Assembly: GCF_004138135.1 (NCBI RefSeq)
Contig: NZ_RYFD01000009.1
Coordinates: forward strand, 1 to 64,000
Source of the DNA: Candidatus Oscillochloris fontis
GTDB lineage: Bacteria > Chloroflexota > Chloroflexia > Chloroflexales > Chloroflexaceae
Direction: 5' to 3'
DNA length: 64,000 nucleotides
Part shown: in pieces, positions 29,280 through 49,200 of the stretch
Numbering within the stretch: position 1 is the stretch's first letter
Layout: each line of letters starts with the position of its first letter
Made by a program: the position numbers and the translations under genes
Notes under the pieces: model-generated
Told to the model about the DNA's origin: nothing
Databases searched by the model: none
What the model saw: the letters and a program-made list of their open reading frames with translations, nothing else

Positions 29280-29605
29280 GCATGACCCTCACTTGGCTTA
29301 GGCTTAATCGTCAACGTAATCGTCAGGTTGGCATTAGCACTGCCCTTAGCCAAGTAGGGAATACCAGCCTCACCCTCAAAGCCCAAGCCCAGTTCGATCT
29401 CTGCTTGTTCAATCAGCATCTCCTGGCTCAGTTCATTCCAGGCAGCAACGGCTGGCCGACAGGCATTGATCAGCAGCGGCTTGATGCGTTCAATGGTCTC
29501 TTCTACTCTACGCGCCTGATCTGAGGAGATCTGCTGCGGCTCGTTCGGCTTGGCCTCAACTTCGATCATGGTTCCATCGGCGAGCCTGATGAGTTTAGTT
29601 GCCAC
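29276..29605 (-). CDS. Trypsin-co-occurring (Trypco1, CU044_2847 family) protein
   Basis: The 109-aa protein matches the Trypco1 family, which is found beside or fused to trypsin-like proteases: RLADGTMIEVEAKPNE at the start, AWNELSQEMLIEQAEIELGLGFEGEAG in the middle and ANLTITLTIKP at the end. It is predicted as a small beta-rich partner. GTG 29605 has a GAGGAG box seven bases upstream. The tight coupling to the protease-SAVED gene suggests it is inhibitor, cofactor or substrate; the family has no settled biochemical role that I know of. Confidence 0.85.
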   Translation of the reverse strand: MATKLIRLADGTMIEVEAKPNEPQQISSDQARRVEETIERIKPLLINACRPAVAAWNELSQEMLIEQAEIELGLGFEGEAGIPYLAKGSANANLTITLTIKPKPSEGHA

Positions 29606-30905: not shown

Positions 30906-31187
30906 CTACCCGCCCACATAGTAGTACGCCGGCTCAACGCTTACCCGCCCGATGCCAAGGATCTGGGTGCGGCGGGCTGAGTCGGCTTCGAGTTGGTAGA
31001 TGCGGATGCTGTCGGTGTTGATGTCTATCAGTGCCGCGAGTTCCTGTTGAAGCTGGCTGAGTTGTTTTTTGTTCAGATCACACTCGAAGACGCTGTATTG
31101 AACCCGCACACCATAGCCATGGAGATGTTTGTGTATCTTGGTGCGGCGTTTGTCTTCGACAATGTCGTAGCTAATCACGGTGAACAT
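30906..31187 (-). CDS. cas2: Cas2
   Basis: Cas2 forms the core dimer of the spacer integrase. The 93-aa product begins MFTVISYDIVEDKRRTKIHK, with the conserved Asp of the ferredoxin fold at position 8. YGVRVQYSVFECDL follows at about 25-38, the usual beta-2 and beta-3 region. ATG 31187 is two bases after the cas1 stop; the longer open frame upstream is read inside cas1 and is not used. Confidence 0.95.
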   Translation of the reverse strand: MFTVISYDIVEDKRRTKIHKHLHGYGVRVQYSVFECDLNKKQLSQLQQELAALIDINTDSIRIYQLEADSARRTQILGIGRVSVEPAYYYVGG

Positions 31188-31189
31188 GG

Positions 31190-32185
31190 TTAGGCCACTC
31201 CTAGCCCTGCATAGTGGGCAATGTCGCCACGCATAACGCGGGCAATCGCTTGGGCTTGTAGCCGGATCGCCTGCCGCCATGCCGTGCGCCCGATCCCAGA
31301 AACTTCTACCGGGCTGTTGAGCAGGCTCTCGTAGCGTTCAATCAGCAACTCACGCCCAGCGTTGCTCAGGTAGACTGCCTCTGGTCGTTGGGCGGGATGT
31401 TCAAAGTGTTGGGGTTGCAGGGTCTGGTTCTCTACCAGATCAAGTACCAGTCGATCAACCAGGCTGGGGCGAAACTCTTCGAGCAGATCGAGGGCCAGTG
31501 AGGGTCGTCCGGCTTCGATCACATGGAAGGTGCCCAGATAGGGGTCAAGGCCGGTGATCTGGATGGCGACCACAACCTCATGCAGCACCAAGGTGTAGCC
31601 GAACGAGAGCATCGCGTTGATCGGATCGGGCGGCGGGTAGAAGGCACGGCCATGGAAGCCCCAGGCCGTTCCCAGGCTGGCACGCCACGCACCGAAATAG
31701 GCGGCGGCACCTACACCTTCATAGCCACGCAGGCTATCCTGGTTGCTCGCGCTCTGCACCCCTATACGGGCAGTCTCGATCTGGCTGATTGCGGAGCGAC
31801 TGGCGGGCCAGTTGCTGCGGCGCAGGAGTGCTTGTTGGGCGCTGAGCTTGATCGTGATTAGGCTGCGGGCCAGTTCTAACGCCCGCGCCGGATCTTGGAC
31901 GAGCGCCATTTGTTGGCTGCGCAACGCCGCAAAGTGCGAGACACCCGGCGCGAGGGTGGCGTAGTGGCGTGTGCCGCTCTGGTTGGTGAAGGTGACGGGT
32001 ACCCCGGCTTCGAGCAGGGTGATCAGAAGCGCGGTCGAGAGTTGCACCCCGCGCCCCATGACGATGAGTTGTTCGAGTTTGTGGATGGGTACGACCTGAA
32101 GGGTCGTGTTGCCGCGACTGACAATGATCTGGTTGTCGCGTTTGCGAATGTTTGCACCCTGATCATTCACGTAGAGGGCAGGCAT
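31190..32185 (-). CDS. cas1: Cas1 integrase
   Basis: Cas1 inserts new spacers at the leader end. The 331-aa protein has the N-terminal beta domain (MPALYVNDQGANIRKRDNQIIVSRG) and the helical catalytic domain. The metal ligands are Glu156 in LRGYEGVGAAAYF, His221 in LGTFHVIEAGRPS and Asp233/Glu236 in LALDLLEEFRP, all present. It is separate from the RT: the RT stop is three bases upstream of the cas1 ATG, so this is not an RT-Cas1 fusion, but coupling is tight. Confidence 0.96.
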   Translation of the reverse strand: MPALYVNDQGANIRKRDNQIIVSRGNTTLQVVPIHKLEQLIVMGRGVQLSTALLITLLEAGVPVTFTNQSGTRHYATLAPGVSHFAALRSQQMALVQDPARALELARSLITIKLSAQQALLRRSNWPASRSAISQIETARIGVQSASNQDSLRGYEGVGAAAYFGAWRASLGTAWGFHGRAFYPPPDPINAMLSFGYTLVLHEVVVAIQITGLDPYLGTFHVIEAGRPSLALDLLEEFRPSLVDRLVLDLVENQTLQPQHFEHPAQRPEAVYLSNAGRELLIERYESLLNSPVEVSGIGRTAWRQAIRLQAQAIARVMRGDIAHYAGLGVA

Positions 32186-32188
32186 GGC

Positions 32189-33589
32189 TTAGCGGCCTTT
32201 CGCTGGTTTGCGGTTGGTTCGGCGACGGTGTGAGGATTGCTTCTGGGTGCGTACACGCTTCATGGTTGTGCGGATGATCACCTCGGCTTCGCTGAATGTT
32301 TGTAGTCCGCGCTCGATAGTGGGGCCACGCCGACGTGGAATGAGACTCTGGCCGAGAAAATCGAGACCATCGTTATAGTTGCGGATGCTGCTCTTCTCAT
32401 GATTCAGGCGCAGGTTGAGGATCGTGAGTTGGCGTTCGATGAGGCGTAGCGTGCGTTCGGCCTCGCTCTGGCTGGCACACATCACCACAAAGTCGTCCAT
32501 GTAGCGCACCAAGCGTAGCCCTTGGCTGGTCAGCGCAATATCAAAGGGATGCAGGTAGATGTTGGCAAGCAGTGGCGAGAGTGGCCCACCCTGGGCGGTG
32601 CCACGCGGCTCTTCACGCGGCCAGTTGGTGGCGACTTCGTAGGCGGCGATAGCCCCGGCAGCGACCGCACCGGCCAGGGCGATGCGCCGCCCTCCGATGC
32701 GCTGGATACTCGGCCATGCGCGCCGTACTCCATTCAGGGCGGGTTGGGCCAACATCAATGCTGTCCACAGGTTGTTCAGGGGTGATTGCTGGCCCACACC
32801 ATACGGGGTTGGTGGGCTGTATGGGCTGCGCCACGCTGAAACCTCTGGCGCTTCCCAATCTTCAACCGGATCGGTGGGGCTAAATGTGGGTGGGATAGGT
32901 GGCCTGTGTTCTGTATGGTTATCCCACATCCGGCGGAAGGTTTGGAGTGTGCGGTTGAGCAGCGAAGGAACGCCTTGTTCTTCCCAGGCGAGTGGGGCTA
33001 CATCTACATAGGCCCCATTGCCACTTCTGAGCCAAGCGGCGATCAGGCGTAGGATCGCAACCTCAGGGACGCGCTGACGCACCAATGTGAGCAACAGCCG
33101 TTGATCAATACTGGAAAAATAGTCCTGAATATCGGCATCAACTACCCAGGTATAGCCCTGGGCGGCATAGCGCGCCACCCGTTCAATCGCATCGGTAACA
33201 CTCAGGCGCGGACGGCATCCGTAGGCGGCGTCGTGCAACAGTGGATCGAAGATCGGTTCCAAGACCTGAAGGGTAGCGCGTTGGGCGATGCGGTCGCGGA
33301 TGGCCATGATCGTAATGGCGCGCTCGCCGCCACTCTTTTTGGGGATGGCAACCATACGCGCCGGGATCGGCTGATAGGTTCCGTTGCGCAACTCTTCGGT
33401 GAGGTTGGCCATCTGTTGCGGCCAGTTGGCATCAAAATCGTGCAGCGAGAGTCCATCTGGGCCGGTGCTACGCGCCCGACGATAGGCCGCAATATTGCTG
33501 CGTACTTGGCGGTAGGCATAGGTCATGTTGTCAACGGCACAGATCTGGTCAATCAATCGGGTTTGTGTATAGGCAGGAAAGAGGCGCAT
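32189..33589 (-). CDS. CRISPR-associated reverse transcriptase with large internal insertion
   Basis: The 466-aa protein is a group II intron-like RT. MVAIPKKSGGERAITIMAIRDRI (about 79-101) is RT1-2, TWVVDADIQDYFSSID (about 147-162) is motif A with its Asp pair, GTAQGGPLSPLLANIYLHPF (330-349) is motif B', and RYMDDFVVM (362-370) is the catalytic YMDD. Between motif A and B' such RTs normally have some 30-40 residues beyond the AAWLRSG helix; here residues about 193-328 form a Pro-rich stretch and a hydrophobic helix (IALAGAVAAGAIAAYEVA). No maturase or endonuclease domain and no intron borders follow. The C-terminus is very basic. ATG 33589 has AAGGAGTTGAT upstream. Between RNase HI and cas1, it probably copies RNA for spacer acquisition. 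Confidence 0.93.
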   Translation of the reverse strand: MRLFPAYTQTRLIDQICAVDNMTYAYRQVRSNIAAYRRARSTGPDGLSLHDFDANWPQQMANLTEELRNGTYQPIPARMVAIPKKSGGERAITIMAIRDRIAQRATLQVLEPIFDPLLHDAAYGCRPRLSVTDAIERVARYAAQGYTWVVDADIQDYFSSIDQRLLLTLVRQRVPEVAILRLIAAWLRSGNGAYVDVAPLAWEEQGVPSLLNRTLQTFRRMWDNHTEHRPPIPPTFSPTDPVEDWEAPEVSAWRSPYSPPTPYGVGQQSPLNNLWTALMLAQPALNGVRRAWPSIQRIGGRRIALAGAVAAGAIAAYEVATNWPREEPRGTAQGGPLSPLLANIYLHPFDIALTSQGLRLVRYMDDFVVMCASQSEAERTLRLIERQLTILNLRLNHEKSSIRNYNDGLDFLGQSLIPRRRGPTIERGLQTFSEAEVIIRTTMKRVRTQKQSSHRRRTNRKPAKGR

Positions 33590-33601
33590 ATCAACTCCTT
33601 G

Positions 33602-33620
33602 TAAAGCTTCCCGGAAGCTA
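33602..33620. promoter_or_regulatory. Intercistronic palindrome, copy A
   Basis: Read on the - strand, TAGCTTCCGGGAAGCTTTA begins with the RNase HI stop codon, contains the near-perfect palindrome AGCTTCC-G-GGAAGCT, and is followed by CAAGGAGT, the RT ribosome binding site. The identical 19 bases occur at 41025-41043 just before another ribosome binding site. Confidence 0.7.
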
Positions 33621-34034
33621 CGTATAGCCGCGCAAGAGTCGCCTTCCGCTCAGTGCCTCCCATGCCAAGGCATCGGCTAGGCGGTTCAGGTCGCGTGGGA
33701 TGTGGATGAAGGTGACATGGGCAAGCTGGGTAGCGAGGGCTGCGGCTTGCGCATAGAGCGGTGCGAGGCCATCCGCACGCACGTTGGCGCGGCCACTGAG
33801 TTGTTCCACCGCAACCTGGCTGTCGGTGAGGCAGCGTACCCGCACACGCCCATAGCGTTCCAGAACCAACTGGAGTCCAACGATGAGTGCTTGGTACTCA
33901 GCCGCATTGCTGGTGTGGGCGGGCATCTGGCATGAGCGCCACGCAAGGATCTGCCCGCCGGGACTACGCACGATTGCCGCGACTCCGGCCATCCCACTAT
34001 GGTTCTGGCCGGGAGTACCATCAACTTGAAGCAC
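33618..34034 (-). CDS. rnhA: RNase HI
   Basis: RNase HI degrades RNA in RNA-DNA hybrids. The 138-aa form has the four catalytic acids: Asp5 in LQVDGTPGQ, Glu46 in SNAAEYQALIVGL, Asp71 in RCLTDSQVAVEQL and Asp121 in NRLADALAWEAL. I choose GTG 34034, which overlaps the stop of the small membrane protein as TAGTG and begins just before the first catalytic strand. The frame is open up to ATG 34241, but the extra 69 residues are a Pro/Thr/Ser-rich stretch that looks like the membrane protein read out of frame. Position before the RT suggests it removes the RNA strand after first-strand synthesis. Confidence 0.88.
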   Translation of the reverse strand: MLQVDGTPGQNHSGMAGVAAIVRSPGGQILAWRSCQMPAHTSNAAEYQALIVGLQLVLERYGRVRVRCLTDSQVAVEQLSGRANVRADGLAPLYAQAAALATQLAHVTFIHIPRDLNRLADALAWEALSGRRLLRGYT

Positions 34035-34246
34035 TAGATACCCGTGATCATGGGTGGTTGCATCAGGGCCAGACTGAGCAGGCTGAGGAGTAGCCCCAAC
34101 ACCAGGAAGATGCTGGCCAGACACCCGCGTAGGATCTGACGCGGGCGTAGGTTGCGTGGCTTGGGCAGACGTGGCCGGGGTGCGACCAGAAAGAGTAGGG
34201 CGATCAGGAATGCCGCTATTGCGCTGGGGATCATGCACCATAACAT
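34034..34246 (-). CDS. Small two-TM membrane protein
   Basis: The 70-aa product has two hydrophobic helices (IPSAIAAFLIALLFLVAP, about 6-23, and ASIFLVLGLLLSLLSLALM, about 44-62) joined by a basic loop (RPRLPKPRNLRPRQILR). ATG 34246 is preceded by a GGAGGT box, and the gene follows the 34261-35172 gene by 14 bases. It ends as TAG overlapping the RNase HI GTG. No family is recognised. It and the next gene upstream are the membrane parts of the operon. Confidence 0.65.
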   Translation of the reverse strand: MLWCMIPSAIAAFLIALLFLVAPRPRLPKPRNLRPRQILRGCLASIFLVLGLLLSLLSLALMQPPMITGI

Positions 34247-34260
34247 GGGTACCTCCGGGT

Positions 34261-35172
34261 CTAACGCATCCGTATTTCGAGGTGGCTCATCATGACTACT
34301 TCGCCAGGGATGAGAGGGGTAGGCTGGGTCTCGCCACTCAGAACTGCTCCGTTAGGCCCAGGCAGAATACATGTGCTCGCAGCGGGTGGCGATCTTGGGC
34401 TGCGCAATGGCGTACAATCGAGTGGTTGGCGTGTAATCGCCACGCCAGCAGGGTAGTTGTGCAGCAGAATAGTTCGATGTTCACCCGTCTCACGATCCCG
34501 AAGATCAATAATCCCCTGGAAGCGTGGGGGCGTGATCCGTTGCGGACGGAGGCGCAGGATGAGTATCAGGAACACGAGGGTCGCCACTGGTACCCACCAC
34601 CAGAGAGATCGTGTCAGATCTGATCCTCCCGATTCTGTATTCTGGTTCGGTGTTGATCGTGGCAGAAGGATGGTAGCGGTAGGTGTTGGACTATGCTGGC
34701 TACTGGCTACCGACCGAGTTGGGCTTGGTGTGGGTGGCGGGTATAGCGGTATCAGGTAATAACTGCTGCTGCTGAAGGTATCGGCAAACTGATCAGTGAG
34801 GGTGATTGTCACCGTGTACCTTCCGGCACCCGCAGCGAGGTCAATCTCTTGTGGTGGCAGGCAGCGAATCGTATGGCCCTCTGGGTCAGCAAAGAGATGC
34901 TGCCACATCTGTAGCGCACCCTGGGCAGGCTGAAAATGCAGACGAACCTCATCATCAGTACAGAGCATCCCCGTGCCATCTGGGCTACTCGCAATGCGTA
35001 CCCGGCTGGGAAGATCGAGCGCGTGACTCTGTTGGTAGAAGATACCCCGCGCTTGCAGCGCTGGTTCGGCTTCACTGATGGCGGGCGCTAAAAGGATTGC
35101 GTTGGACTGGGTGTGTATGAATAGGGTGCCAGTTACGAGTAGCAACCCGACAAGGTGGGGGCTTGGGTACAT
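34261..35172 (-). CDS. Signal-anchored membrane protein of the adaptation operon
   Basis: The 303-aa protein has an N-terminal signal or anchor (LVGLLLVTGTLFIHTQSNAI), a predicted external region of about 130 residues, a Pro/Ser/Thr-rich linker (about 145-185), a transmembrane helix (LWWWVPVATLVFLILILRLR, about 189-208) and a cytosolic tail of about 95 residues. The tail (FQGIIDLRDRETGEHRTILL...GEVVMMSHLEIRMR) has the beta-rich look of an FHA or related fold, but no phosphothreonine motif is certain. ATG 35172 has a GGAGGT box. I know no family. Position four bases from the coiled-coil gene links it to the tubulin-like protein. Confidence 0.6.
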   Translation of the reverse strand: MYPSPHLVGLLLVTGTLFIHTQSNAILLAPAISEAEPALQARGIFYQQSHALDLPSRVRIASSPDGTGMLCTDDEVRLHFQPAQGALQMWQHLFADPEGHTIRCLPPQEIDLAAGAGRYTVTITLTDQFADTFSSSSYYLIPLYPPPTPSPTRSVASSQHSPTPTATILLPRSTPNQNTESGGSDLTRSLWWWVPVATLVFLILILRLRPQRITPPRFQGIIDLRDRETGEHRTILLHNYPAGVAITRQPLDCTPLRSPRSPPAASTCILPGPNGAVLSGETQPTPLIPGEVVMMSHLEIRMR

Positions 35173-35175
35173 AGA

Positions 35176-36465
35176 CTACCTCCACGTAGCTTGGGCCAGA
35201 TCCTCTAGGACATACAGGTTGCGTTGGTTGAGAATCTGCTCAAACTGCTCGTTCCCCTCCTGAAGAATCCGCAGATCAGCACTAGAGATCGCCGATTCGA
35301 GTTGCACAAACCCCATCCGTTGGATGGCATCACCATAAGCGGCGCTGCCTAAACCATCGAGATGAAAGAGGGGTTGCCCATCATTCGTCACCTGGACGAT
35401 TTCAACCCGTGGGTGCGCCGTGCGCAGTAAGCGCCAAGCGCTCTGTTCTTGGAGTTGACTGAGGAGCGCCTGTCCAACCAGCACCAATGGATCAAGGGCA
35501 GGATCAGCGAGATCACCAGCTTCAGCCATTATGGCCTCGGCTATCGAAAGATTGTCTATAATGCGAGCAGCTTCACGCTCAGCAAGTGTATGTGCCACCT
35601 CGGCAAGATGATCAAGATGAGTATTATTGCTTATGTACGCAATCAGATCGGCAACCAAACGATCAGTCGCAACCCGCTTCATGAGTTGTGTAGACAGGGA
35701 ATCAGGGTTAATCTGCCATGTCCAGGGGGCATAGAGCGACATGGCCTCTGCTGCTGCCCGGTGTTCACGCTGCTGCTGCTGCGCTTGCACTAGATTGCGC
35801 TCAATGGTTTGCAGCAGACTCGCTTGACGTTCGCGTAATATCTCAACCTCATCGTTCAATCGCCCAACCACCGCCCGTGCTGCGGCCACAGCGTGATAGC
35901 TGAGATGCAGACTTTCACGCCGATTCCACAGGGCTATCGCTTGGGGCAGCGAGATCCGCTTGGTACTGCCAACAATCCAGCCCATCATATTCTGGAATAG
36001 CCCTGGTTCCTGTTCGGTCGTCTCTTGCCATGTCTGGAGTGATTGTTGGCAATTGCGTAGCTCATAGCCAACCTCTTCGTACTGCGCACTGAAGAGATGA
36101 TCGAGGTGGAGTAGTTCGCTATGCAGGCTCTCCAAAAAGATGCTAAATGGGGTGATGTCGCTGCTATGCGCTAACCTTCGATGCAACCGATTGATAGCCG
36201 CATCGCCAATCCGTTCGCCATTCTGTTTAAGCAGCGCTTCGGCCCCTCCCACTGCCTCCTTGCGGATCAAGAGGTCAAATTGGGCGGGCATCTGGCTGAG
36301 ATCATCCATCACTGCCAACACCACCGGGGAAAATGGGCGTCCGGTTGCATCGAGCAGCAGATGAGCGGGCAGATCGCGGGTGAGCATGGCGGCGCTACAG
36401 AAGGTGATACCTGCGTTCTCAGGGGGTGGCGCTGCTTCTGTCGCCGGGAGCATACGTGCAAGCAT
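35176..36465 (-). CDS. Coiled-coil protein adjacent to the tubulin-like gene
   Basis: The 429-aa protein has no signal peptide. The middle (about 185-245 in LWNRRESLHLSYHAVAAARAVVGRLNDEVEILRERQASLLQTIERNLVQAQQQQREHR) is strongly predicted as coiled coil. The N-terminal part (VLAVMDDLSQMPAQFDLLIR) and C-terminal part (LVLVGQALLSQLQEQSAWRLL) are helical-globular. I do not recognise a family. ATG 36465 has AAGGAG seven bases upstream; the longer frame to 36498 would overlap the tubulin-like gene. It is a likely partner of the tubulin-like protein. Confidence 0.65.
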   Translation of the reverse strand: MLARMLPATEAAPPPENAGITFCSAAMLTRDLPAHLLLDATGRPFSPVVLAVMDDLSQMPAQFDLLIRKEAVGGAEALLKQNGERIGDAAINRLHRRLAHSSDITPFSIFLESLHSELLHLDHLFSAQYEEVGYELRNCQQSLQTWQETTEQEPGLFQNMMGWIVGSTKRISLPQAIALWNRRESLHLSYHAVAAARAVVGRLNDEVEILRERQASLLQTIERNLVQAQQQQREHRAAAEAMSLYAPWTWQINPDSLSTQLMKRVATDRLVADLIAYISNNTHLDHLAEVAHTLAEREAARIIDNLSIAEAIMAEAGDLADPALDPLVLVGQALLSQLQEQSAWRLLRTAHPRVEIVQVTNDGQPLFHLDGLGSAAYGDAIQRMGFVQLESAISSADLRILQEGNEQFEQILNQRNLYVLEDLAQATWR

Positions 36466-36484
36466 TGGGTTACTCCTTCTGATC

Positions 36485-37651
36485 TCAAGCGGTTTCAAAA
36501 CAGGCAGCTAGGGCTTGCAGGCTTGCAATCTGGATCTGATCGGCTAGTGCTGATTGCAGGTGGGACACATCCAGACTCGCTACGGCTGCGCGGAGTGTAT
36601 GCAGGTAGCGCAGGCGGCCATCGCTACTGATCTCCTCATTTGCCAGATGACTGGCAATTGTCGGCCAGATAGTGCCGCGTGTGAGGAGCAGATAGAGGCT
36701 CAACGCGGTCTGATCAAAGAAGCGTTCGAGATCGGTGTCGCTACTTCGCCCATGTTCAGTGCTAACCGTCGGCGCATCCATCAAGAAGACCCGATCATAC
36801 GGCGGGGCTTGGAGGGCAATATGTAGATCATGGAGGTAGGTGCGGCGTTGCCCATTGCGGGCCAGATGATCAAGGGCGTGGAGCAGGGCACGGTAGTTAT
36901 GGCGGGTGAAGGGTGTCAGGCCACTGAAGATATGTGGCCCCAACACAACCCCCCAGAGTTCGTAGTCCTTGATGCCAGCTTCGTTGAGCAGATGGCGCAC
37001 CAGTGCGGGCAGCAGTTGGTGTCCGGCATTGCCCATTGAACCAGAGCCGCCGCCAACCACCACCACACGCGGGCGGTGTTGCCGGTTCGCATGGTGTTGG
37101 TGATGCTGGCGCAGGAGCCGTTCCCAATCGCTGCGCCCATCTGAAGCGGCATGATTGCCACGCAAGCGACGAATTTGATGGTTTAAGAAGGCAATCACCG
37201 CGCTACTATTCAGATCAATATCGAGGGCAGAAATCACGGGATGGCCGTGTCCACCATACCCGGCACGCGGGAAGGTCTCGAAGACGGGGATGCCACGCAG
37301 GAGGGTTGCGTAGCGATCTTTGAGTAGCGGATAATCATCAATTCGATCACGCGGATTCTCGCTACTAAATACGAGGCGTTCAGTGAGTGCCACCTGCTCG
37401 GTTGCCCCATCGGGTGTACGTACCTGGAGTGAGCGTGGCGCCAGATTATCATTGTTAATGCCACATGCGGCCAGATGTAGCCCATCACCGCGCCCCAAGG
37501 CAGCGATGCGCTGAATCACGCTCTCTCCAGAATTGCCGATGGCGATCAGCCAGAGATCGCGCAAGAGGGGTTCCGATGGAGCCGTTGCCGTTGCTGTTGG
37601 TAGCGCGGCATCAAAACGGCGTAGGGTTGCAACATCAATGGCGGGGTGCAT
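36485..37651 (-). CDS. Tubulin/FtsZ-like GTPase
   Basis: The 388-aa protein carries the tubulin signature loop as VVVVGGGSGSMGNAGHQLLP (GGGSGSMG at about 200-207; GGGTGSG in tubulin/FtsZ), with an N-terminal nucleotide strand LWLIAIGNSGESVIQRIAAL (about 33-52). ELWGVVLGPHIFSGLTPFTRHNYRALLHAL (about 230-260) resembles the helix-strand that follows in tubulin-like proteins, and YDRVFLMDA the later beta strand. It is shorter than most bacterial tubulin-like proteins. ATG 37651 has a TAAGGAG box. It is the first gene of the - strand operon that ends in cas1-cas2. GTP binding is likely; polymer formation is unproven. Confidence 0.75.
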   Translation of the reverse strand: MHPAIDVATLRRFDAALPTATATAPSEPLLRDLWLIAIGNSGESVIQRIAALGRGDGLHLAACGINNDNLAPRSLQVRTPDGATEQVALTERLVFSSENPRDRIDDYPLLKDRYATLLRGIPVFETFPRAGYGGHGHPVISALDIDLNSSAVIAFLNHQIRRLRGNHAASDGRSDWERLLRQHHQHHANRQHRPRVVVVGGGSGSMGNAGHQLLPALVRHLLNEAGIKDYELWGVVLGPHIFSGLTPFTRHNYRALLHALDHLARNGQRRTYLHDLHIALQAPPYDRVFLMDAPTVSTEHGRSSDTDLERFFDQTALSLYLLLTRGTIWPTIASHLANEEISSDGRLRYLHTLRAAVASLDVSHLQSALADQIQIASLQALAACFETA

Positions 37652-37778: not shown

Positions 37779-37811
37779 AAAAAAACTCCGGGCAGTGCGC
37801 GTGCCCGGAGT
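37779..37811 (-). terminator. Rho-independent terminator
   Basis: On the - strand ACTCCGGGCA and TGCCCGGAGT form a perfect 10-bp stem with a 7-base loop, followed by a run of seven T. It stops transcripts from the SARP-like gene, so the tubulin-like/cas1 operon needs its own promoter between 37651 and 37778. Confidence 0.92.
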
Positions 37812-37841
37812 TAGCATAGTTGCGGTTGATACTGGAAGGCT

Positions 37842-38615
37842 TTAAGCGGCCGTATCGTGTTCAGGAAAATCATCATCCTCATCCTCATCTGACGCCTTTC
37901 TACGATGGTAGTTCGCCCGATGCTGGCTACCAAGTGCGGCAAAAATATCGGCGAATATGCTATGATCGCTCGCTTCCTCACTCCCCAAGTGGGTGAGCTT
38001 GCGGGCTACCTTGAGGGCTTCGCTATAGGCGCTATGCTCCATCAGCAGACCACTCAGCCGGTGAATGATGTCGCGCTGGAACGATTCCCAGTAGGTTTGC
38101 AGGTGCGTCAGGGGATAATCCGGCTTGTCATAATCGGGCAGGTAGCGACCGCCACAGAATGCGGCGGCCTGCTGGAGTGCGTGGATGGCCGCACTCGTAT
38201 TGTGGTTGGAGAGATGTTCATTGGCCTGCTCGGCGAGGGCTTCGATCTGATCGGTGTCGCTGCTCCAACACCTATGCCGGATCAGCATCATGCTGTTCTC
38301 GCGTTCGATCAGTGCGGGAAGCATCCCCCACTTCCTCAACCACTGCTTTAAGCCACTGGTGAGGTTACTGGGTCGGGCGATGTGGGGCCAATTGGGGCTG
38401 ACGATAGCGGCAAGATCGTTGCGGGCAATGGGGTGTTCGGCTTTGGCTACGAGGTAACTCACCATCCGTTTGATCTGGTGAGCGCCGAGTCGGGCGATCT
38501 TCCAATCCGCTTTGCCATGCGGGGTGATAACCCGTAGATCTCCGATCAGGTAGATCATCGTACTACAGTGATCCTCTTCGCCAGATTCCTCCGAGTGCTG
38601 GTTCGCGGTACCCAT
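37842..38615 (-). CDS. SARP/BTAD-like transcriptional regulator
   Basis: The 257-aa protein has an OmpR/SARP-like N-terminal winged helix (MIYLIGDLRVITPHGKADWK...QIKRMVSYLVAKAEHPIARNDLAAIVSPN) and the BTAD-type helical repeat part (AAIHALQQAAAFCGGRYLPDYD, then LLMEHSAYSEALKVARKLTHL). It ends in an acidic tail (SDEDEDDDFPEHDTAA). ATG 38615 has an AGAGGA box; the open frame upstream is translated repeat. Position between two other regulators and the adaptation operon suggests a role in cas control. Confidence 0.75.
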   Translation of the reverse strand: MGTANQHSEESGEEDHCSTMIYLIGDLRVITPHGKADWKIARLGAHQIKRMVSYLVAKAEHPIARNDLAAIVSPNWPHIARPSNLTSGLKQWLRKWGMLPALIERENSMMLIRHRCWSSDTDQIEALAEQANEHLSNHNTSAAIHALQQAAAFCGGRYLPDYDKPDYPLTHLQTYWESFQRDIIHRLSGLLMEHSAYSEALKVARKLTHLGSEEASDHSIFADIFAALGSQHRANYHRRKASDEDEDDDFPEHDTAA

Positions 38616-38689
38616 GTGCGTCCTCTTTCTTCCGAGCATTACATAGGGGCGTATCATGATGCGCCCTATACACCTCAAACTCACGAGAT

Positions 38690-38820
38690 TTCTGCTTGGG
38701 GCTACGTCCCAAGCCCATGGTTTTGCTGGTGCGGTTGGCCGCTTTGCGGCCAACCGCACCAGCAATGCTCTCTTTTTCGCGGGGGCCGCAGGCCCCCGCA
38801 CCTCCGCTACGGGCTTAAGT
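38690..38820. repeat. Composite hairpin element, copy 2
   Basis: GGGGCTACGTCCCAAGCCC, a perfect 20-bp inverted repeat (38723-38742 with 38746-38765, loop TTT), a CTCTTTTTCG stretch, GGGGGCCGCAGGCCCCC and CCTCCGCTACGGG follow the same order as in 29655-29815. A GGGGCGTATCATGATGCGCCC hairpin lies just before it at about 38646. The gap between the SARP-like and MerR-type genes holds nothing else. Confidence 0.85.
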
Positions 38821-38903
38821 ATAGCACCTGTACCCTCCGAGGGGAAGATACTTTTTGAGATCATTTTTGGTTCACGCTGATATTTTCCGTATATGACTGA
38901 GAT

Positions 38904-41012
38904 TTAAGGAATTAAAGCTACACGTTGGGCGGTATTTGCCTGATTTTTCGAGAATATATCGAAATTAAGCAACCTTCCCGCACGGTTACGCAGCAAATCA
39001 ATAATCGTACTCATGTGGCGGTTGAGCGTCAGAGCATCATCGCAGGCAATATCGCACAGGCTCTGGTAGCGTAGCACCTTCACGGCGGCACAAATCGAGA
39101 TGAAGTCGCTGTTGGCTGCGCGACCAGGGATGCTCAGTGGTGCATCGGCAACCTGTTCAACAATCCGTTCGAGGAGTGCTTTAGCCCGCTCTCCGGTGCA
39201 GTGATCAATCAGCACGACAGCATGATCATTGCCAAACCAGTAGCAATCCTGGTAGTCGGCACCGAGAACCCGGCGCACTGCCGCCGTTACATGGTGTTGG
39301 ACATAGATCGGAAAGGGCTGATTGCTGCGTACCTGGATCAGTTCACGATAGTGGTTGATGTCAATCACGGCGAGTGCAAGGCTCTCGTGCAGGGCAACCG
39401 GGTCATCAACAACTCGCATCTGCTCCCAGCGCCGACGGATGGCAGCCAGCGCCCGTTGAAAGCCAGGGCCATGGGCATCGAGGCTATCGAGCCATGCCAG
39501 CATGGCTGGGAGTTGCTGATGCAGCCGCGTATCCTGGGCGCGGCGTAACCGGGTGAGCCACCAACGCCCTAAGAGTTCACTCAGAATATCGCCGATGACC
39601 AGGGCACAGGTCATCGCCGCACTATCCAGGCGCTGATCGGGATTGCGCGAGGCGAGGTAGAGTACCCCAAAGGGCGAAAGCCCCCAACTCGTAGCCAGTG
39701 GAATCGCTAGGGCAACATGGCTCTGCTCTTCTAACCCATAGCGTACCTTATGGGGGTCTGCATCCACATTGAGCGACACAAAAGGCTCGCGTGAACGATA
39801 GGCGCGCCCACTCAACCCCTGACCGCTGCCTTCTAGGCTGAGTTTGGCATGCGCAACCAGCGCGTCTACATAGCCATGATAGGCCAGAATCGCCAGCGTG
39901 GTTGGCTGATCCAGACCATCAGGAACCAGCAGGACTGCCATACGTGAGTCGTCATGGGGGAAGATGGTTTCGCCAATCAGCCTGAGAATATTGCTATAGC
40001 TCTGGCGCGTCAGATCAAGCGGGAAGCCATCGGAGCGGTAGCGATACCCATGCCCATGGGTGACACGCCGAAAATCTTGATAGATGGTATGTGCTAATTG
40101 AAGCAGCCGATCCAGGATGAGTCGGCGGCCAGGGGCGAGTTCGGCTGGCTCAAGGATGGCAGGCTCAAGCGGGGCATCAAGCGCAATCACGAGCATCTGT
40201 GCGGGCGTAACGGATGGAACATAGACCGCAAATACTGCAGCATCAAACTCGGTAATAGGGTGCGATTCGTGGCTATAGAAGAGCAAGGTTTGGGTATCGG
40301 AGCCGCTACTCTGGAGCAGTTCGTAGGCCCATTCCTGTGAATTGTAGGTAGTATCGCTCGGTGGTGTGGGGCGATAGAGCGCAATCAAGCTGCCAGCCGG
40401 ATTCTGGCAGAGTTGCTGCCCCAAGTGCTGTACCGTGGCAGCATCAGGCGGCCAGTCTTCCAGCATCGCTTGGCCTGGGTAGATGAGCCCGCGCACACGC
40501 GGCAGCGTTGATCCTGGGTGTGCGCTTTGACGCTCGCCCAATTCGGCCTCAAACGCTGAAATAATCTCGCTAATAATCCGGGCCAAAAAGAAGCCATCGG
40601 CAATCGCTTGCCCTTCCTGTTTCAGGGCTGTATCGAGGGCAAAGGGCACCTCATGATCAATTAGACTCGCATTGCGGCGCACAATATCAGCCGCCTCAGC
40701 ACTCTTATAGTCGCTGCTGAGCAACGCAAGCACGCGCAATCGGCGCAGATCGCTCAGGTTGTAGAGCCGACTCGCGCCACTCTGGCCGGTTGTTGTTGCC
40801 GGTTGGAGTGCCCCCAACGATTCGTAATAGCGAATCTGTGATTGTTTAAGACCACAAATAGCACTCGCACGCCCAATCGTGACGCGCAGATCAGCACTCC
40901 AGCGGGGAGCCTCTTCGGCCACTTGGCGCAGGACGCGGTGTAACCGATTCGCTTCTTCTTCCTGGACGCTAGGCTCGGATAGTGCGGGAAATTCGGGCAG
41001 GTCTGAAACCAT
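38904..41012 (-). CDS. MerR-type HTH regulator with GAF and degenerate GGDEF-like domains
   Basis: The 702-aa protein opens with a MerR helix-turn-helix (VTIGRASAICGLKQSQIRYYESLGALQPA...GASRLYNLSDLRRLRVLALL, about 43-100). The region about 215-300 resembles a DICT-like sensor. About 330-485 is GAF-like (LRLIGETIFPHDDSRMAVLLV... FGVLYLASRNPDQRLDSAAMT). The C-terminal 170 residues resemble a GGDEF fold (LAVIDINHYRELIQ...YWFGNDHAVVLI), but the GGDEF loop reads GNDHA, so cyclase activity is unlikely. ATG 41012 has AAGGAG seven bases upstream. It lies 11 bases from the WYL gene, so the two form an operon. Confidence 0.78.
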   Translation of the reverse strand: MVSDLPEFPALSEPSVQEEEANRLHRVLRQVAEEAPRWSADLRVTIGRASAICGLKQSQIRYYESLGALQPATTTGQSGASRLYNLSDLRRLRVLALLSSDYKSAEAADIVRRNASLIDHEVPFALDTALKQEGQAIADGFFLARIISEIISAFEAELGERQSAHPGSTLPRVRGLIYPGQAMLEDWPPDAATVQHLGQQLCQNPAGSLIALYRPTPPSDTTYNSQEWAYELLQSSGSDTQTLLFYSHESHPITEFDAAVFAVYVPSVTPAQMLVIALDAPLEPAILEPAELAPGRRLILDRLLQLAHTIYQDFRRVTHGHGYRYRSDGFPLDLTRQSYSNILRLIGETIFPHDDSRMAVLLVPDGLDQPTTLAILAYHGYVDALVAHAKLSLEGSGQGLSGRAYRSREPFVSLNVDADPHKVRYGLEEQSHVALAIPLATSWGLSPFGVLYLASRNPDQRLDSAAMTCALVIGDILSELLGRWWLTRLRRAQDTRLHQQLPAMLAWLDSLDAHGPGFQRALAAIRRRWEQMRVVDDPVALHESLALAVIDINHYRELIQVRSNQPFPIYVQHHVTAAVRRVLGADYQDCYWFGNDHAVVLIDHCTGERAKALLERIVEQVADAPLSIPGRAANSDFISICAAVKVLRYQSLCDIACDDALTLNRHMSTIIDLLRNRAGRLLNFDIFSKNQANTAQRVALIP

Positions 41013-43206: not shown

Positions 43207-46200
43207 GTGCTTAGATCCGCCCCGAAATGAAGGGGTTTGAAACCTTATTGATTTTTGTAAACAGGGCGAGGGGGATTTACGTGCTTAGATCCGCCCCGAA
43301 ATGAAGGGGTTTGAAACTCCGAGCTCGGGTCAGGGGGTGAAACCCTCACAAGTGCTTAGATCCGCCCCGAAATGAAGGGGTTTGAAACGCCTGCGAAACG
43401 GGGAGGCCTTAGCTTTTTTTGCCAGGTGCTTAGATCCGCCCCGAAATGAAGGGGTTTGAAACAAAAAGAAATGCCACCACCAACAAGTATACCAATTTGT
43501 GCTTAGATCCGCCCCGAAATGAAGGGGTTTGAAACCAGGTTATGGCGCCTGATACCTCGGCACCTGAGGCCGTGCTTAGATCCGCCCCGAAATGAAGGGG
43601 TTTGAAACGAGCACCTGTATGAATTGTCCGCGCGGCTCCTCAAATGGTGCTTAGATCCGCCCCGAAATGAAGGGGTTTGAAACGTTTTCCAATAAATTTG
43701 GAAACGATGCTTAAAACCTCGTGCTTAGATCCGCCCCGAAATGAAGGGGTTTGAAACAAACAATGGACCACGCTCGGCAATTTTCGCAGTACTTGTGCTT
43801 AGATCCGCCCCGAAATGAAGGGGTTTGAAACAAGAAGAGGCACCCAGGCTGGGCGCTCTCGCGGGGCAGGTGCTTAGATCCGCCCCGAAATGAAGGGGTT
43901 TGAAACAATCCTGTCCGCATGTCATACACCACACCCCTGAATTGTGTGCTTAGATCCGCCCCGAAATGAAGGGGTTTGAAACATGGAAAGGATAAAAGCC
44001 TTTACGTAACGCATGATAACGTGCTTAGATCCGCCCCGAAATGAAGGGGTTTGAAACTTGACAGGGCGAAGACAGCGATCAGGGCAATGAGCGTGCTTAG
44101 ATCCGCCCCGAAATGAAGGGGTTTGAAACAAAAATTACAACCGGAACCTGCCATTATCGGCAGGTAGTGCTTAGATCCGCCCCGAAATGAAGGGGTTTGA
44201 AACCCACAAAGCGTATGCTCGGTGCTGAAGAACTGGCATCGTGCTTAGATCCGCCCCGAAATGAAGGGGTTTGAAACATAGATGTAATCATGGTATTCAC
44301 TGGACCAGGAACAAGTGCTTAGATCCGCCCCGAAATGAAGGGGTTTGAAACTGGGTGGTTCTAACCCACACGCCGACAAAACGAGCAGTGCTTAGATCCG
44401 CCCCGAAATGAAGGGGTTTGAAACGCATTCAGTCTTTACTACCCCTGCAGAGTCACATGTCGTGCTTAGATCCGCCCCGAAATGAAGGGGTTTGAAACAT
44501 CGCCGTCGGACCTTCGCGGTCAAGGTGATCTGTAGTGCTTAGATCCGCCCCGAAATGAAGGGGTTTGAAACTTCCGCCCGACGGAGCCGCCGACGGGCAT
44601 GACAAATTGTGCTTAGATCCGCCCCGAAATGAAGGGGTTTGAAACAATTCATCGCCGGCCGCGGGCCATTGGCAGTAGCCGGTGCTTAGATCCGCCCCGA
44701 AATGAAGGGGTTTGAAACCATCGCCGGCAGGCGGGACAGGAATCGAACCTGCAACCGTGCTTAGATCCGCCCCGAAATGAAGGGGTTTGAAACTTTTGTG
44801 GTGACGGTTGCCCGCCATTCGAGAGGTGTTGTGCTTAGATCCGCCCCGAAATGAAGGGGTTTGAAACTCGGACTCTCTCTCCCCTTGTGCGAGGTTTGGG
44901 GGGAGTGCTTAGATCCGCCCCGAAATGAAGGGGTTTGAAACCCGGGGCCACCGGCGGACCTGGCTCCACCCACCAATGTGCTTAGATCCGCCCCGAAATG
45001 AAGGGGTTTGAAACTCGTACCCTATGCCCCCGCACTGGAGGCATATAGGATAGTGCTTAGATCCGCCCCGAAATGAAGGGGTTTGAAACTGTCGCAACTC
45101 ATACACACGATCATTACCTTTGCCTCGTGCTTAGATCCGCCCCGAAATGAAGGGGTTTGAAACGGACTCTCTCTCCCCTTGTGCGAGGTTTGGGGGGAGA
45201 GTGCTTAGATCCGCCCCGAAATGAAGGGGTTTGAAACACCCGCAGAACCCTACCTATCGCCGATCTTTATTTTTTGTGCTTAGATCCGCCCCGAAATGAA
45301 GGGGTTTGAAACTCAAGATCCGCCTGAACGGCGGCATCATCGCAAGCCACGTGCTTAGATCCGCCCCGAAATGAAGGGGTTTGAAACAAGTAGCTTCAAG
45401 AAACAGGGCGGTCAGGCAGGAAAAAAGTGCTTAGATCCGCCCCGAAATGAAGGGGTTTGAAACTTCAACTTATCGGCCAATCCAGTTAAGGAAACTGGGG
45501 TGCTTAGATCCGCCCCGAAATGAAGGGGTTTGAAACCTGAGGGGGCAGGCCTTGGGCGAACTGGTCGTTGAAAGCCGTGCTTAGATCCGCCCCGAAATGA
45601 AGGGGTTTGAAACTTGCCGCGGCGGCGGCAACACAGAGGCCAAGGAACAGGTGCTTAGATCCGCCCCGAAATGAAGGGGTTTGAAACTTGAACACAGCGA
45701 ACAGCATCTGGGGGTTATTGCCGGGTGCTTAGATCCGCCCCGAAATGAAGGGGTTTGAAACACCGCTCGAGACCTCCACGGGTTTCCCAGTAGCGGCGGG
45801 TGCTTAGATCCGCCCCGAAATGAAGGGGTTTGAAACGAGATCCGCGAGCTGCCAACCACCACCGCCCACCTCGTGCTTAGATCCGCCCCGAAATGAAGGG
45901 GTTTGAAACTAGAAACCGGTTGCCAGCCCCCTCTTAGCCTCCCGGTGCTTAGATCCGCCCCGAAATGAAGGGGTTTGAAACAGGTGTACCTACGACCCCC
46001 GACCACCACCACGATGTGCTTAGATCCGCCCCGAAATGAAGGGGTTTGAAACGCTTGGGGAAGTCCTGCCAGTTGCGGCCTTGGCGCGTGCTTAGATCCG
46101 CCCCGAAATGAAGGGGTTTGAAACTCACCCCCCTAATTAAGGGGGACTAAAGGTTTCGGCGGTGCTTAGATCCGCCCCGAAATGAAGGGGTTTGAAACTC

Positions 46201-49200
46201 GACTGAGGGTTTGGGTTGTTAATGGGCGTGACGTGCTTAGATCCGCCCCGAAATGAAGGGGTTTGAAACCTGGTACGGTGGGCAGGGAACTTCGGGTGGA
46301 CAAGCAGTGCTTAGATCCGCCCCGAAATGAAGGGGTTTGAAACTCGGTGGGGGTATTGAACACCCCGCCAGCACCATCAGTGCTTAGATCCGCCCCGAAA
46401 TGAAGGGGTTTGAAACTGACCCGATCAATACTTCCTAGGTTCATCCCTTTCTCGTGCTTAGATCCGCCCCGAAATGAAGGGGTTTGAAACCCGTTGGGCC
46501 CAGCTGAACAGATGCGGACGCGGTGGTGCTTAGATCCGCCCCGAAATGAAGGGGTTTGAAACGCGAACTATCTCTCCCCTTATGCGAGGTTTGGGGGGGG
46601 TGCTTAGATCCGCCCCGAAATGAAGGGGTTTGAAACTTAAAGGTACCGGGGTAACGAGCGCCGGCTCCACCCAGTGCTTAGATCCGCCCCGAAATGAAGG
46701 GGTTTGAAACTGTTACCCCGTCCACCCCCTTCGCGGGGGCCCCGCACGCCGTGCTTAGATCCGCCCCGAAATGAAGGGGTTTGAAACGCTTTTTTTATTT
46801 TGTCGTTGCCCATCTTTCTACAAAACGTGCTTAGATCCGCCCCGAAATGAAGGGGTTTGAAACATTATGAGGGAGATACACTCCCCAAAATTGGGGAGCC
46901 CGTGCTTAGATCCGCCCCGAAATGAAGGGGTTTGAAACAATTTTGTCCAAATCTGAACGGGTAAAATTGTTGACGTGCTTAGATCCGCCCCGAAATGAAG
47001 GGGTTTGAAACTTTGTTTGGTTCTTGCACTAAAAGTTGAGTCAAAGCGTGCTTAGATCCGCCCCGAAATGAAGGGGTTTGAAACCATTTGGAAAGAATCA
47101 AACCAAACAGCAATTTTGGATGTGCTTAGATCCGCCCCGAAATGAAGGGGTTTGAAACTAAAAGAGATTATTTTGGACAAACCAAAAAGCCACTCGTGCT
47201 TAGATCCGCCCCGAAATGAAGGGGTTTGAAACAAAAATCTCCGACCCTCGTACGAAAAATCGCCCAATGGTGCTTAGATCCGCCCCGAAATGAAGGGGTT
47301 TGAAACTTGATGGCGGAGGTGAGTTCGGCTTCAGGTGCGGGTTTGTGCTTAGATCCGCCCCGAAATGAAGGGGTTTGAAACTCTCTACGAGAGACCCACT
47401 CCGCACGAACCGAGTCAAGTGCTTAGATCCGCCCCGAAATGAAGGGGTTTGAAACGAGGCAGGTATCACCCACTGGACTTTCCAGTGAGCAAGTGCTTAG
47501 ATCCGCCCCGAAATGAAGGGGTTTGAAACGAAACAAACTACCCGCAAATGGTACATATCCATGTAGTGCTTAGATCCGCCCCGAAATGAAGGGGTTTGAA
47601 ACAAGTTGAAAGTCAAGTAAGCAAAAGCGGAACCAAACCGTGCTTAGATCCGCCCCGAAATGAAGGGGTTTGAAACTCCCCTAGCTACTCGTTAGGGATG
47701 AACCTCCATTTCGTGCTTAGATCCGCCCCGAAATGAAGGGGTTTGAAACGAACTTGGTTTGGACAGGGTGTTGCACCCCATCCCTGTGCTTAGATCCGCC
47801 CCGAAATGAAGGGGTTTGAAACGAATTACAGCGAACAGTCTCCCCTCTGTGCGAGGTTTGTGCTTAGATCCGCCCCGAAATGAAGGGGTTTGAAACTTGG
47901 TGACCTGGAATCGGGTCACTGTATTGGGGTCCGTGCTTAGATCCGCCCCGAAATGAAGGGGTTTGAAACCATAAAGACACTGGCCTCGGTGTCGTCGTTT
48001 GACCAGTGCTTAGATCCGCCCCGAAATGAAGGGGTTTGAAACAGCGACGCATCTGGAAAACTCCTTACATTAAAGTATGTGCTTAGATCCGCCCCGAAAT
48101 GAAGGGGTTTGAAACTCGTCGAGATGCCACAACCGGTTAGAACGACCAGCATGTGCTTAGATCCGCCCCGAAATGAAGGGGTTTGAAACAGCGGTCCCGG
48201 CTCGGCCCACCAATTGGCGGGTGCCGGGTGCTTAGATCCGCCCCGAAATGAAGGGGTTTGAAACCCGATTGCGGAAACGGATTATTTAGTGGGGTGACAG
48301 TGTGCTTAGATCCGCCCCGAAATGAAGGGGTTTGAAACGGCGAAAATTTGAGGATATTCCAGAAAATCTTCGTTCGTGCTTAGATCCGCCCCGAAATGAA
48401 GGGGTTTGAAACATCTTTATACATGTAGGCGTACACGACCACGCCCACGTGTGCTTAGATCCGCCCCGAAATGAAGGGGTTTGAAACACGCGGATGCGGA
48501 TGCGGATGTGGTCACGGGGGCAACTAAGGTGCTTAGATCCGCCCCGAAATGAAGGGGTTTGAAACGGTAAGCCGCAGCCGGCGCTGATGAGCTCAGCGCA
48601 AGCGTGCTTAGATCCGCCCCGAAATGAAGGGGTTTGAAACGAGACTGGCGGAGGGTTTTTAAGGCCCTCCGCTATCAAGTGCTTAGATCCGCCCCGAAAT
48701 GAAGGGGTTTGAAACACCGAGCCGCAGCCACCCGTGAGGGGGTTGCCGCAGCGTGCTTAGATCCGCCCCGAAATGAAGGGGTTTGAAACAACATCGCGTC
48801 GGTCAGCGTCACCACGAGGTTCAACTGGTGCTTAGATCCGCCCCGAAATGAAGGGGTTTGAAACCTCAACGCGTGGGCGTACGCCCGCGCCGAAGGGCGC
48901 GTGCTTAGATCCGCCCCGAAATGAAGGGGTTTGAAACCTTCAACTGGCCGTCCCAGCGATAGAGGCTCTGGCTCGTGCTTAGATCCGCCCCGAAATGAAG
49001 GGGTTTGAAACTTGAATTTGCCACCCATCATAGGGTGGTTGTACCTCTGTGCTTAGATCCGCCCCGAAATGAAGGGGTTTGAAACACGGTTGCCCGCCAT
49101 TGTGGCGGGGTCGGTCCGTCGAGTGCTTAGATCCGCCCCGAAATGAAGGGGTTTGAAACAGGTCTAAGTAAGCAAAAAAACGGAACCAAACCTTGTGCTT

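What the first reader, a model, noticed from the sequence alone, without database searches (positions are those of the whole stretch)
34034..37651. Tubulin-like GTPase, coiled-coil and two membrane proteins lead the RT-Cas1-Cas2 operon
On the - strand, genes run tubulin-like, coiled-coil, signal-anchored, two-TM, RNase HI, RT, cas1, cas2 with gaps of 19 bases or less up to RNase HI, a 28-bp gap before the RT, and several overlaps. The GGGSGSMG loop is a clear tubulin/FtsZ nucleotide motif. I know of no described role for a tubulin-like GTPase in spacer acquisition. The two membrane proteins suggest that part of the process is membrane-placed, or that a separate cytoskeletal defence module has merged with the adaptation genes.
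Basis: partly seen in the sequence, partly recalled or inferred. Interest (0 to 1): 0.9.

Follow-up and report, generated by a model that had tools for sequence, protein, structure and literature searches.

The report
Tubulin-membrane cassette leads RT-CRISPR adaptation operon
In a few Chloroflexota bacteria the genes that write new CRISPR memories, probably from RNA, are led in one conserved operon by a tubulin-like protein and membrane proteins, standing where related bacteria keep a flotillin-like membrane-scaffold gene, which suggests that this kind of immune memory-making is organised on the cell membrane.

Summary
Genes TUB (tubulin-like), CC (coiled-coil), SIG (membrane-anchored), TM2 (two-TM), RNase HI, RT, cas1 and cas2 run in one direction at 30906-37651 (-), with no internal terminator and one before TUB. 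TUB has a tubulin/FtsZ fold and is closest to the FtsZl1/Tubulin_2 family, although no Pfam model matches it.

The order TUB-CC-SIG-TM2-(RNase HI)-RT-cas1-cas2 recurs in five Chloroflexaceae genomes (three genera; two loci split over contigs), beside both III-B and III-D-like interference genes, so the cassette follows the adaptation genes. Only one of six genomes with TUB has it without CRISPR (beside M48 and TPR-CHAT genes).

New finding: most related RT-cas1 loci instead carry an SPFH/Band-7 (flotillin-like) gene next to RNase HI/RT. No TUB genome has that gene anywhere, and no SPFH-bearing genome sampled has TUB. TM2 and an RT insert with a conserved hydrophobic helix occur in both kinds.

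Best explanation: TUB/CC/SIG is a captured module acting as a membrane scaffold for RT-Cas1-Cas2 spacer acquisition, interchangeable with SPFH. The genetic link is well supported; the mechanism is inferred, since GTPase activity and filaments are untested and two homologues have an altered T4 loop.

The parts
36485..37651 (-). TUB: tubulin/FtsZ-like protein (388 aa), divergent offshoot of FtsZl1/Tubulin_2 without its C-terminal region
   Evidence: hhalign P 2.3e-10 to PF13809 members (second alignment 6e-7, unrelated controls 0.36-0.62); all 50 listed structural matches are tubulin/FtsZ/CetZ/TubZ, best Z 12.9 (model pLDDT only 43)
35176..36465 (-). CC: helical/coiled-coil protein (429 aa), no family match
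   Evidence: homologues in same place in four other genomes
34261..35172 (-). SIG: signal/anchor, extracytoplasmic beta domain, P/S/T linker, TM helix at residues ~190-208, C-terminal beta domain
   Evidence: relative in G137 E 3e-19
34034..34246 (-). TM2: 70-aa two-TM protein, stop overlaps RNase HI start by one base
   Evidence: hydropathy; conserved beside RNase HI in TUB and SPFH loci
33618..34034 (-). RNase HI (type 1; catalytic D, E, D, D positions present by eye)
   Evidence: PF13456 E 2.9e-20
32189..33589 (-). Group II-intron-like RT (YMDD) with an insert before the Q-G-G motif containing a conserved hydrophobic helix
   Evidence: PF00078 E 7.7e-31 in two pieces; insert in all 17 RTs that cover it; profile found in 20 of 400 phylum genomes
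31190..32185 (-). cas1
   Evidence: PF01867 E 3.1e-81
30906..31187 (-). cas2
   Evidence: ORF; homologues follow cas1 in relatives
37784..37812 (-). intrinsic-terminator-like hairpin separating the upstream BTAD-like regulator from TUB
37842..38864 (-). BTAD-like regulator upstream (also upstream of TUB in G238 and G409, not in G402/G403); outside the operon proper
38904..41012 (-). MerR-GAF regulator, same distribution as the BTAD-like gene
43207..49678 (.). CRISPR array, at least 78 repeats of 37 nt (outer limits as seen in the scanned stretch 20000-50000; may extend further)

Best explanation
The cassette is a membrane-anchored scaffold for (probably RNA-derived) spacer acquisition. TUB, a divergent FtsZl1-like protein that probably binds GTP, assembles with CC on the cytoplasmic side and is held to the membrane by SIG. 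TM2 and the hydrophobic insert of the RT bring RNase HI, RT, Cas1 and Cas2 to the same patch, where captured RNA is copied, its RNA strand removed and the product integrated into the array. In most relatives an SPFH/Band-7 protein, itself from a membrane-scaffold superfamily, takes the cassette's place. Shown: the genes, their conserved order, the tubulin-type fold, the tie to adaptation genes across different interference types, and the mutual exclusion with SPFH. Inferred: GTP binding, assembly, direct contact with RT or Cas1, RNA as spacer source, and any effect on spacer acquisition. The module was probably captured from a conflict-type system such as the one in G137.
For: Conserved order in five genomes of three genera; TUB comes first in the operon, after a terminator (window), while upstream regulators and interference type differ; the only dispersed component besides RT-cas1-cas2-RNase HI shared by TUB and SPFH loci is a small membrane protein, TM2; SPFH in 16 of 20 non-TUB loci and in none of 5 TUB loci (Fisher P 0.0013; remnant left out, relatedness ignored) and in none of the five TUB genomes anywhere; RT insert with conserved hydrophobic helix; purifying selection on TUB, CC, SIG; FtsZl1 relatives were predicted to act in membrane remodelling (PMC2875224).
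Against: No experiment. Three RT-cas1 loci (G110, G158, G330) have neither scaffold, so it is not indispensable. T4 loop altered in G402/G403 and no T7 motif seen, so GTP hydrolysis and filament formation are doubtful. The RT helix is borderline as a membrane span, and Cas1/Cas6 contain stretches of similar hydropathy. Exclusion with SPFH rests on related genomes. The SPFH match is weak (best E 9e-6).
Confidence: 0.42

Rival explanations
1. Independent defence module: SIG senses infection or envelope damage outside, TUB/CC respond with a membrane or cell-arrest effect, and the module merely shares a transcript with the adaptation genes.
For: The G137 relative is free of CRISPR genes on its contig and lies beside TPR-CHAT and M48 protease genes; tubulins occur in GTPase-centred conflict systems (PMC7159879); SIG evolves faster than TUB and CC and has an extracytoplasmic beta domain.
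Against: In Chloroflexaceae it is found only with RT-cas1, in fixed order across different interference types; exclusion with the SPFH gene of the same operon is not expected; no recognisable effector domain or PADLOC match.
Confidence: 0.3
2. Regulator or gate: SIG and TUB form a switch that turns adaptation on during infection, without serving as a physical scaffold.
For: SIG has both an outer and an inner domain; TUB without clear T7 or C-terminal domain could be a GTP switch rather than a filament; several regulators flank the locus.
Against: Replacement by a coiled-coil SPFH protein, a scaffold-type family, fits assembly better than switching.
Confidence: 0.2
3. Passenger genes: a chance insertion between the regulators and cas1, inherited with the operon but unrelated to it in function.
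For: G406 has the same regulator pair directly followed by cas1-cas2, without cassette or RT; few independent occurrences.
Against: Conserved order and tight spacing over divergent genera and in different interference contexts, purifying selection, exclusion with SPFH.
Confidence: 0.08

Closest known systems
FtsZl1 / Tubulin_2 family (PF13809; Makarova and Koonin 2010, PMC2875224)
   Same: Significant profile-profile similarity over 266 columns (P 2.3e-10); association with membrane proteins and coiled coils; coexists with canonical FtsZ
   Different: Below Pfam detection; lacks the ~500-aa C-terminal region; CC is a separate gene with no detectable similarity to that region; no vWA, P-loop GTPase or OmpA gene in the operon; the window's genome has no PF13809 match at all
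RT-CRISPR clade 9, Chloroflexi (Toro 2017, PMC5541045)
   Same: Chloroflexota RT next to, not fused with, Cas1
   Different: That paper had no complete operon for clade 9 and reports no tubulin, SPFH, RNase HI or membrane gene in the searched text; placement in that clade was not tested with their sequences
GTPase-centred conflict systems with tubulins (Kaur 2020, PMC7159879)
   Same: Tubulin-domain proteins with coiled coils and membrane proteins in predicted conflict loci; Band-7 scaffolding domains in related systems
   Different: Those have TRAFAC GTPases, vWA, FNIII or HSP70 partners; none described there with Cas1 as far as searched
CetZ / TubZ / FtsZ filament-forming GTPases
   Same: Fold of the GTPase domain (best CetZ1, Z 12.9, 3.3 A over 164 residues)
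   Different: No sequence-level match in the PDB, no T7 motif seen, no evidence of filaments; the genome has two canonical FtsZ genes elsewhere
Type III RT-Cas1 systems such as Marinomonas mediterranea III-B
   Same: RT, Cas1, Cas2 with type III interference genes; RNA spacers known there (PMC11014452)
   Different: RT separate, with insert; extra RNase HI, TM2 and TUB/CC/SIG or SPFH genes

Membership tests
Tubulin/FtsZ superfamily | GTPase-domain fold | tested here: met
   All 50 listed matches are superfamily members, best Z 12.9; caution: model pLDDT 43, Foldseek E only 0.04
Tubulin/FtsZ superfamily | T4 signature GGGTG[ST]G | tested here: inconclusive
   GGGSGSMG in three of five Chloroflexaceae homologues; GGVGGAMG and GGASGAMG in two
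Tubulin/FtsZ superfamily | T7 catalytic loop | tested here: inconclusive
   No recognisable motif seen by eye after H7 in the alignment; FtsZl1 also lacks a confident T6-H7 region (PMC2875224)
Tubulin/FtsZ superfamily | GTP-dependent polymerisation | not testable with these tools
   needs biochemistry
FtsZl1 / Tubulin_2 (PF13809) | Sequence similarity over the GTPase domain | tested here: met
   hhalign 96.8%, P 2.3e-10; but no hmmscan match of the single sequence and none in the genome
FtsZl1 / Tubulin_2 (PF13809) | C-terminal coiled coil plus helical domain in the same protein | tested here: not met
   TUB ends after the GTPase domain; separate CC gene shows no similarity to that region (P 0.28)
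FtsZl1 / Tubulin_2 (PF13809) | vWA or P-loop GTPase partner genes | tested here: not met
   No such Pfam match among the operon genes scanned
Type III CRISPR adaptation module with RT | RT, Cas1 and Cas2 together with type III interference genes | tested here: met
Type III CRISPR adaptation module with RT | Acquisition of spacers from RNA | not tested
   inferred from the RT with YMDD and RNase HI
RT-CRISPR clade 9 | Chloroflexota RT, separate from Cas1, placed in that clade by phylogeny | not tested
   Chloroflexota origin and separate RT seen; no tree with the published clade was built
SPFH / Band 7 (the alternative gene in relatives) | Band_7 domain | tested here: inconclusive
   4 of 7 members match PF01145, best E 9e-6; one scored 23.3 bits against a cut-off of 23.6

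The most novel reading that the evidence does not exclude
A tubulin-superfamily protein is a working part of CRISPR memory formation: GTP-controlled TUB/CC assemblies, anchored by SIG, gather RT-Cas1-Cas2 on the membrane, and flotillin-like SPFH proteins do the same job in relatives, so that type III spacer acquisition in this bacterial order is a membrane-organised process.
Probability: 0.3. Interest if true: 0.92.

Novelty: new variant of a known kind. Interest (0 to 1): 0.74.

Why it matters
Spacer acquisition is generally treated as a soluble reaction of Cas1-Cas2 and host factors. A conserved choice between two unrelated membrane or cytoskeletal partners in one RT-cas1 lineage would point to a spatial step in memory formation and make the question of where type III systems capture RNA directly testable. 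It would also add a tubulin-family role unrelated to division or plasmid segregation.

Tried and rejected
Cell-division FtsZ: rejected, the genome has two canonical FtsZ genes elsewhere. Phage or plasmid TubZ: no relative in the phage, plasmid or viral-contig collections. CC as a split-off FtsZl1 C-terminus: attractive, but no similarity. Known defence system: no PADLOC match for TUB, CC, SIG, TM2 or RNase HI. PHROGs: nothing for TUB. Sequence search of solved structures with the TUB and SPFH profiles: nothing meaningful. First hhalign against a single Tubulin_2 member and against FtsZ gave only weak values (0.014, 0.053); the proper eight-member alignment settled it. SIG fold: generic beta sandwich, best Z 8.0 among mixed unrelated rows, uninformative. 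One acquisition of TUB in the RT or Cas1 tree: not monophyletic in the best trees (2 and 3 changes), but long branches make placement unsure. Prior description: nine literature searches and targeted reading found no tubulin or SPFH gene reported in an RT-cas1 operon; the library excludes most subscription papers.
Full report
WHAT IS THERE. The - strand of the window carries, from 37651 down to 30906, TUB (36485-37651), CC (35176-36465), SIG (34261-35172), TM2 (34034-34246), RNase HI (33618-34034), RT (32189-33589), cas1 (31190-32185) and cas2 (30906-31187). Spacings are 28 bp or less throughout (with the CC start moved to ATG 36465, which has a Shine-Dalgarno AAGGAG). The only terminator-like hairpin on that strand lies at 37812-37784, between the BTAD-like regulator and TUB. 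A CRISPR array of at least 78 repeats begins at about 43.2 kb, and type III-B cmr genes lie on the other side (for Cas10/Cmr2 and Cmr4).

THE TUBULIN-LIKE PROTEIN. Pfam, NCBIfam, PADLOC and PHROGs give no match. A profile of six homologues matches eight Tubulin_2 (PF13809, FtsZl1) members from related genomes with P 2.3e-10 over 266 columns. A separately built alignment gives 6e-7, against 0.36-0.62 for three unrelated controls matched to the same family. Canonical FtsZ gives only 0.053. The AlphaFold model is poor (pLDDT 43; two sequences were allowed), and plain Foldseek finds nothing below E 0.04, yet every one of the 50 structural matches listed by the second aligner is a tubulin, FtsZ, CetZ or TubZ chain (best CetZ1, Z 12.9, 3.3 A over 164 residues). 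Together I take the superfamily as established. GTP hydrolysis is not established: the T4 loop is altered in two of five Chloroflexaceae homologues and I saw no T7 motif. It is not the division protein, since the genome has two canonical FtsZ genes elsewhere.

CONSERVATION OF THE CASSETTE. TUB was found in only 3 of 400 sampled Chloroflexota genomes, and CC in 5 of 41 genomes of the family. In the five Chloroflexaceae genomes that have it (the window's genome, G238, G409, G402, G403) the order is TUB-CC-SIG-TM2-(RNase HI)-RT-cas1-cas2. Caveats: the G238 and G402 loci are each split over two contigs (in G238 SIG and TM2 were not seen because the contig ends inside CC), the G409 contig ends inside the RT so its cas1 is not seen, and G409 lacks RNase HI between TM2 and RT. 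Interference genes differ (III-B in the window; Csx7-type RAMPs, III-D-like, in G403 and G409), and so do the upstream regulators (MerR-GAF plus BTAD, or a two-component pair). The cassette therefore travels with the adaptation genes. dN/dS between G402 and G403 is about 0.18 (TUB), 0.16 (CC) and 0.41 (SIG), and TUB and RT show similar constraint between the window and G238 (synonymous changes are near saturation there). The one occurrence away from CRISPR is G137, a distant Chloroflexota genome: SIG, TUB and a weakly similar coiled-coil gene beside M48 peptidase, DUF4126 and TPR-CHAT genes on a 14.4-kb contig.

WHAT RELATIVES HAVE INSTEAD. A search with cas1 over the family and with the RT insert over the phylum led to further RT-cas1 loci. 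In most of them a protein of about 430-480 aa with a weak Band_7/SPFH match and a long coiled-coil tail lies between RNase HI and RT, or next to them. Of 20 assessable non-TUB loci, 16 have it intact, one (L086) has a C-terminal remnant, and three (G110, G158, G330) have none. None of the five TUB loci has it (Fisher P 0.0013 leaving out the remnant and ignoring relatedness), and none of the five TUB genomes has it anywhere. Conversely, the SPFH-bearing genomes that were in the sample have no TUB. SPFH occurs in Chloroflexaceae and in two other families of the order (L136-L138, L141, L142), so it looks older than the TUB arrangement; this is an inference from distribution. In the RT tree TUB loci need two changes and in the Cas1 tree three, which fits repeated gain, exchange or loss; long branches make this unsure.

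SHARED MEMBRANE FEATURES. TM2 lies beside RNase HI in both kinds of locus. The RT carries an insert just before the G-[TA]-x-Q-G motif with a conserved helix of the type LLLGGALAAGAVAAGELAL in all 17 RTs that cover it. The helix is hydrophobic but borderline for a membrane span, and Cas1 and Cas6 contain stretches with similar values, so this alone proves nothing. SIG has a signal or anchor, an all-beta domain with two conserved cysteines in the Chloroflexaceae versions, a TM helix and a C-terminal beta domain; its fold search was uninformative.

INTERPRETATION. I conclude with good confidence (about 0.85) that TUB/CC/SIG is functionally tied to RT-Cas1-Cas2. The best mechanism is a membrane-anchored scaffold for spacer acquisition, interchangeable with an SPFH scaffold (0.42). 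Rivals are an independent defence module that shares the transcript (0.30), a regulator that gates adaptation (0.20) and passenger genes (0.08). The three loci with neither scaffold show that such a partner is not indispensable. RNA as the spacer source is inferred from the intact RT and RNase HI motifs and from RT-Cas1 systems elsewhere.

RELATION TO THE KNOWN. The RT fits the description of RT-CRISPR clade 9 (Chloroflexi, RT separate from Cas1), for which Toro and colleagues had no complete operon (PMC5541045); I did not place it in a tree with theirs. FtsZl1 systems were predicted to act in membrane remodelling (PMC2875224), and tubulin-containing GTPase-centred conflict systems, and Band-7 scaffolding domains in related systems, are described in PMC7159879. 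No searched paper reports a tubulin or SPFH gene in an RT-cas1 operon, but the library lacks most subscription journals.

Noticed in passing
window 27747-29279 (-) and 29276-29605 (-): Trypsin-like protease fused to a SAVED sensor domain next to a Trypco1 gene, beside the cmr genes: probably a cyclic-oligonucleotide-activated protease effector of the type III-B system.
   Followed up: partly
window 41024-43057 (-): WYL / Helicase_C_3 protein next to the array; a homologue sits on the cas2 side of the locus in most relatives, so it seems a regular companion of this adaptation module.
   Followed up: partly
L079, L080, L082-L085, L087-L090, L136-L138, L141, L142: SPFH/Band-7-like gene next to RNase HI and RT in Chloroflexaceae and two other families of the order; deserves study in its own right.
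   Followed up: yes
L086:11974-12600: Decayed SPFH gene: only a C-terminal fragment remains between RNase HI and RT.
   Followed up: partly
L077 (G406): MerR-GAF and BTAD-like genes directly followed by cas1-cas2, without RT or cassette; the window's Cas1 groups with this one in the tree, whereas its RT groups with G238, hinting at mosaic origin.
   Followed up: partly
L032:12305-13606 and L004:4622-6076: Related CRISPR-adjacent proteins with hydrophobic segments, no NCBIfam match, next to a TIGR02619 (CARF-type) gene in the III-D-like loci.
   Followed up: no
L005:3210-12192 (G137): CRISPR-free SIG-TUB-CC set beside M48 peptidase, DUF4126 and TPR-CHAT genes: a possible ancestral conflict system.
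   Followed up: partly
L004:13640-13870: SIG in the G409 MAG ends early and its expected C-terminal part continues in another frame, perhaps an assembly error.
   Followed up: no
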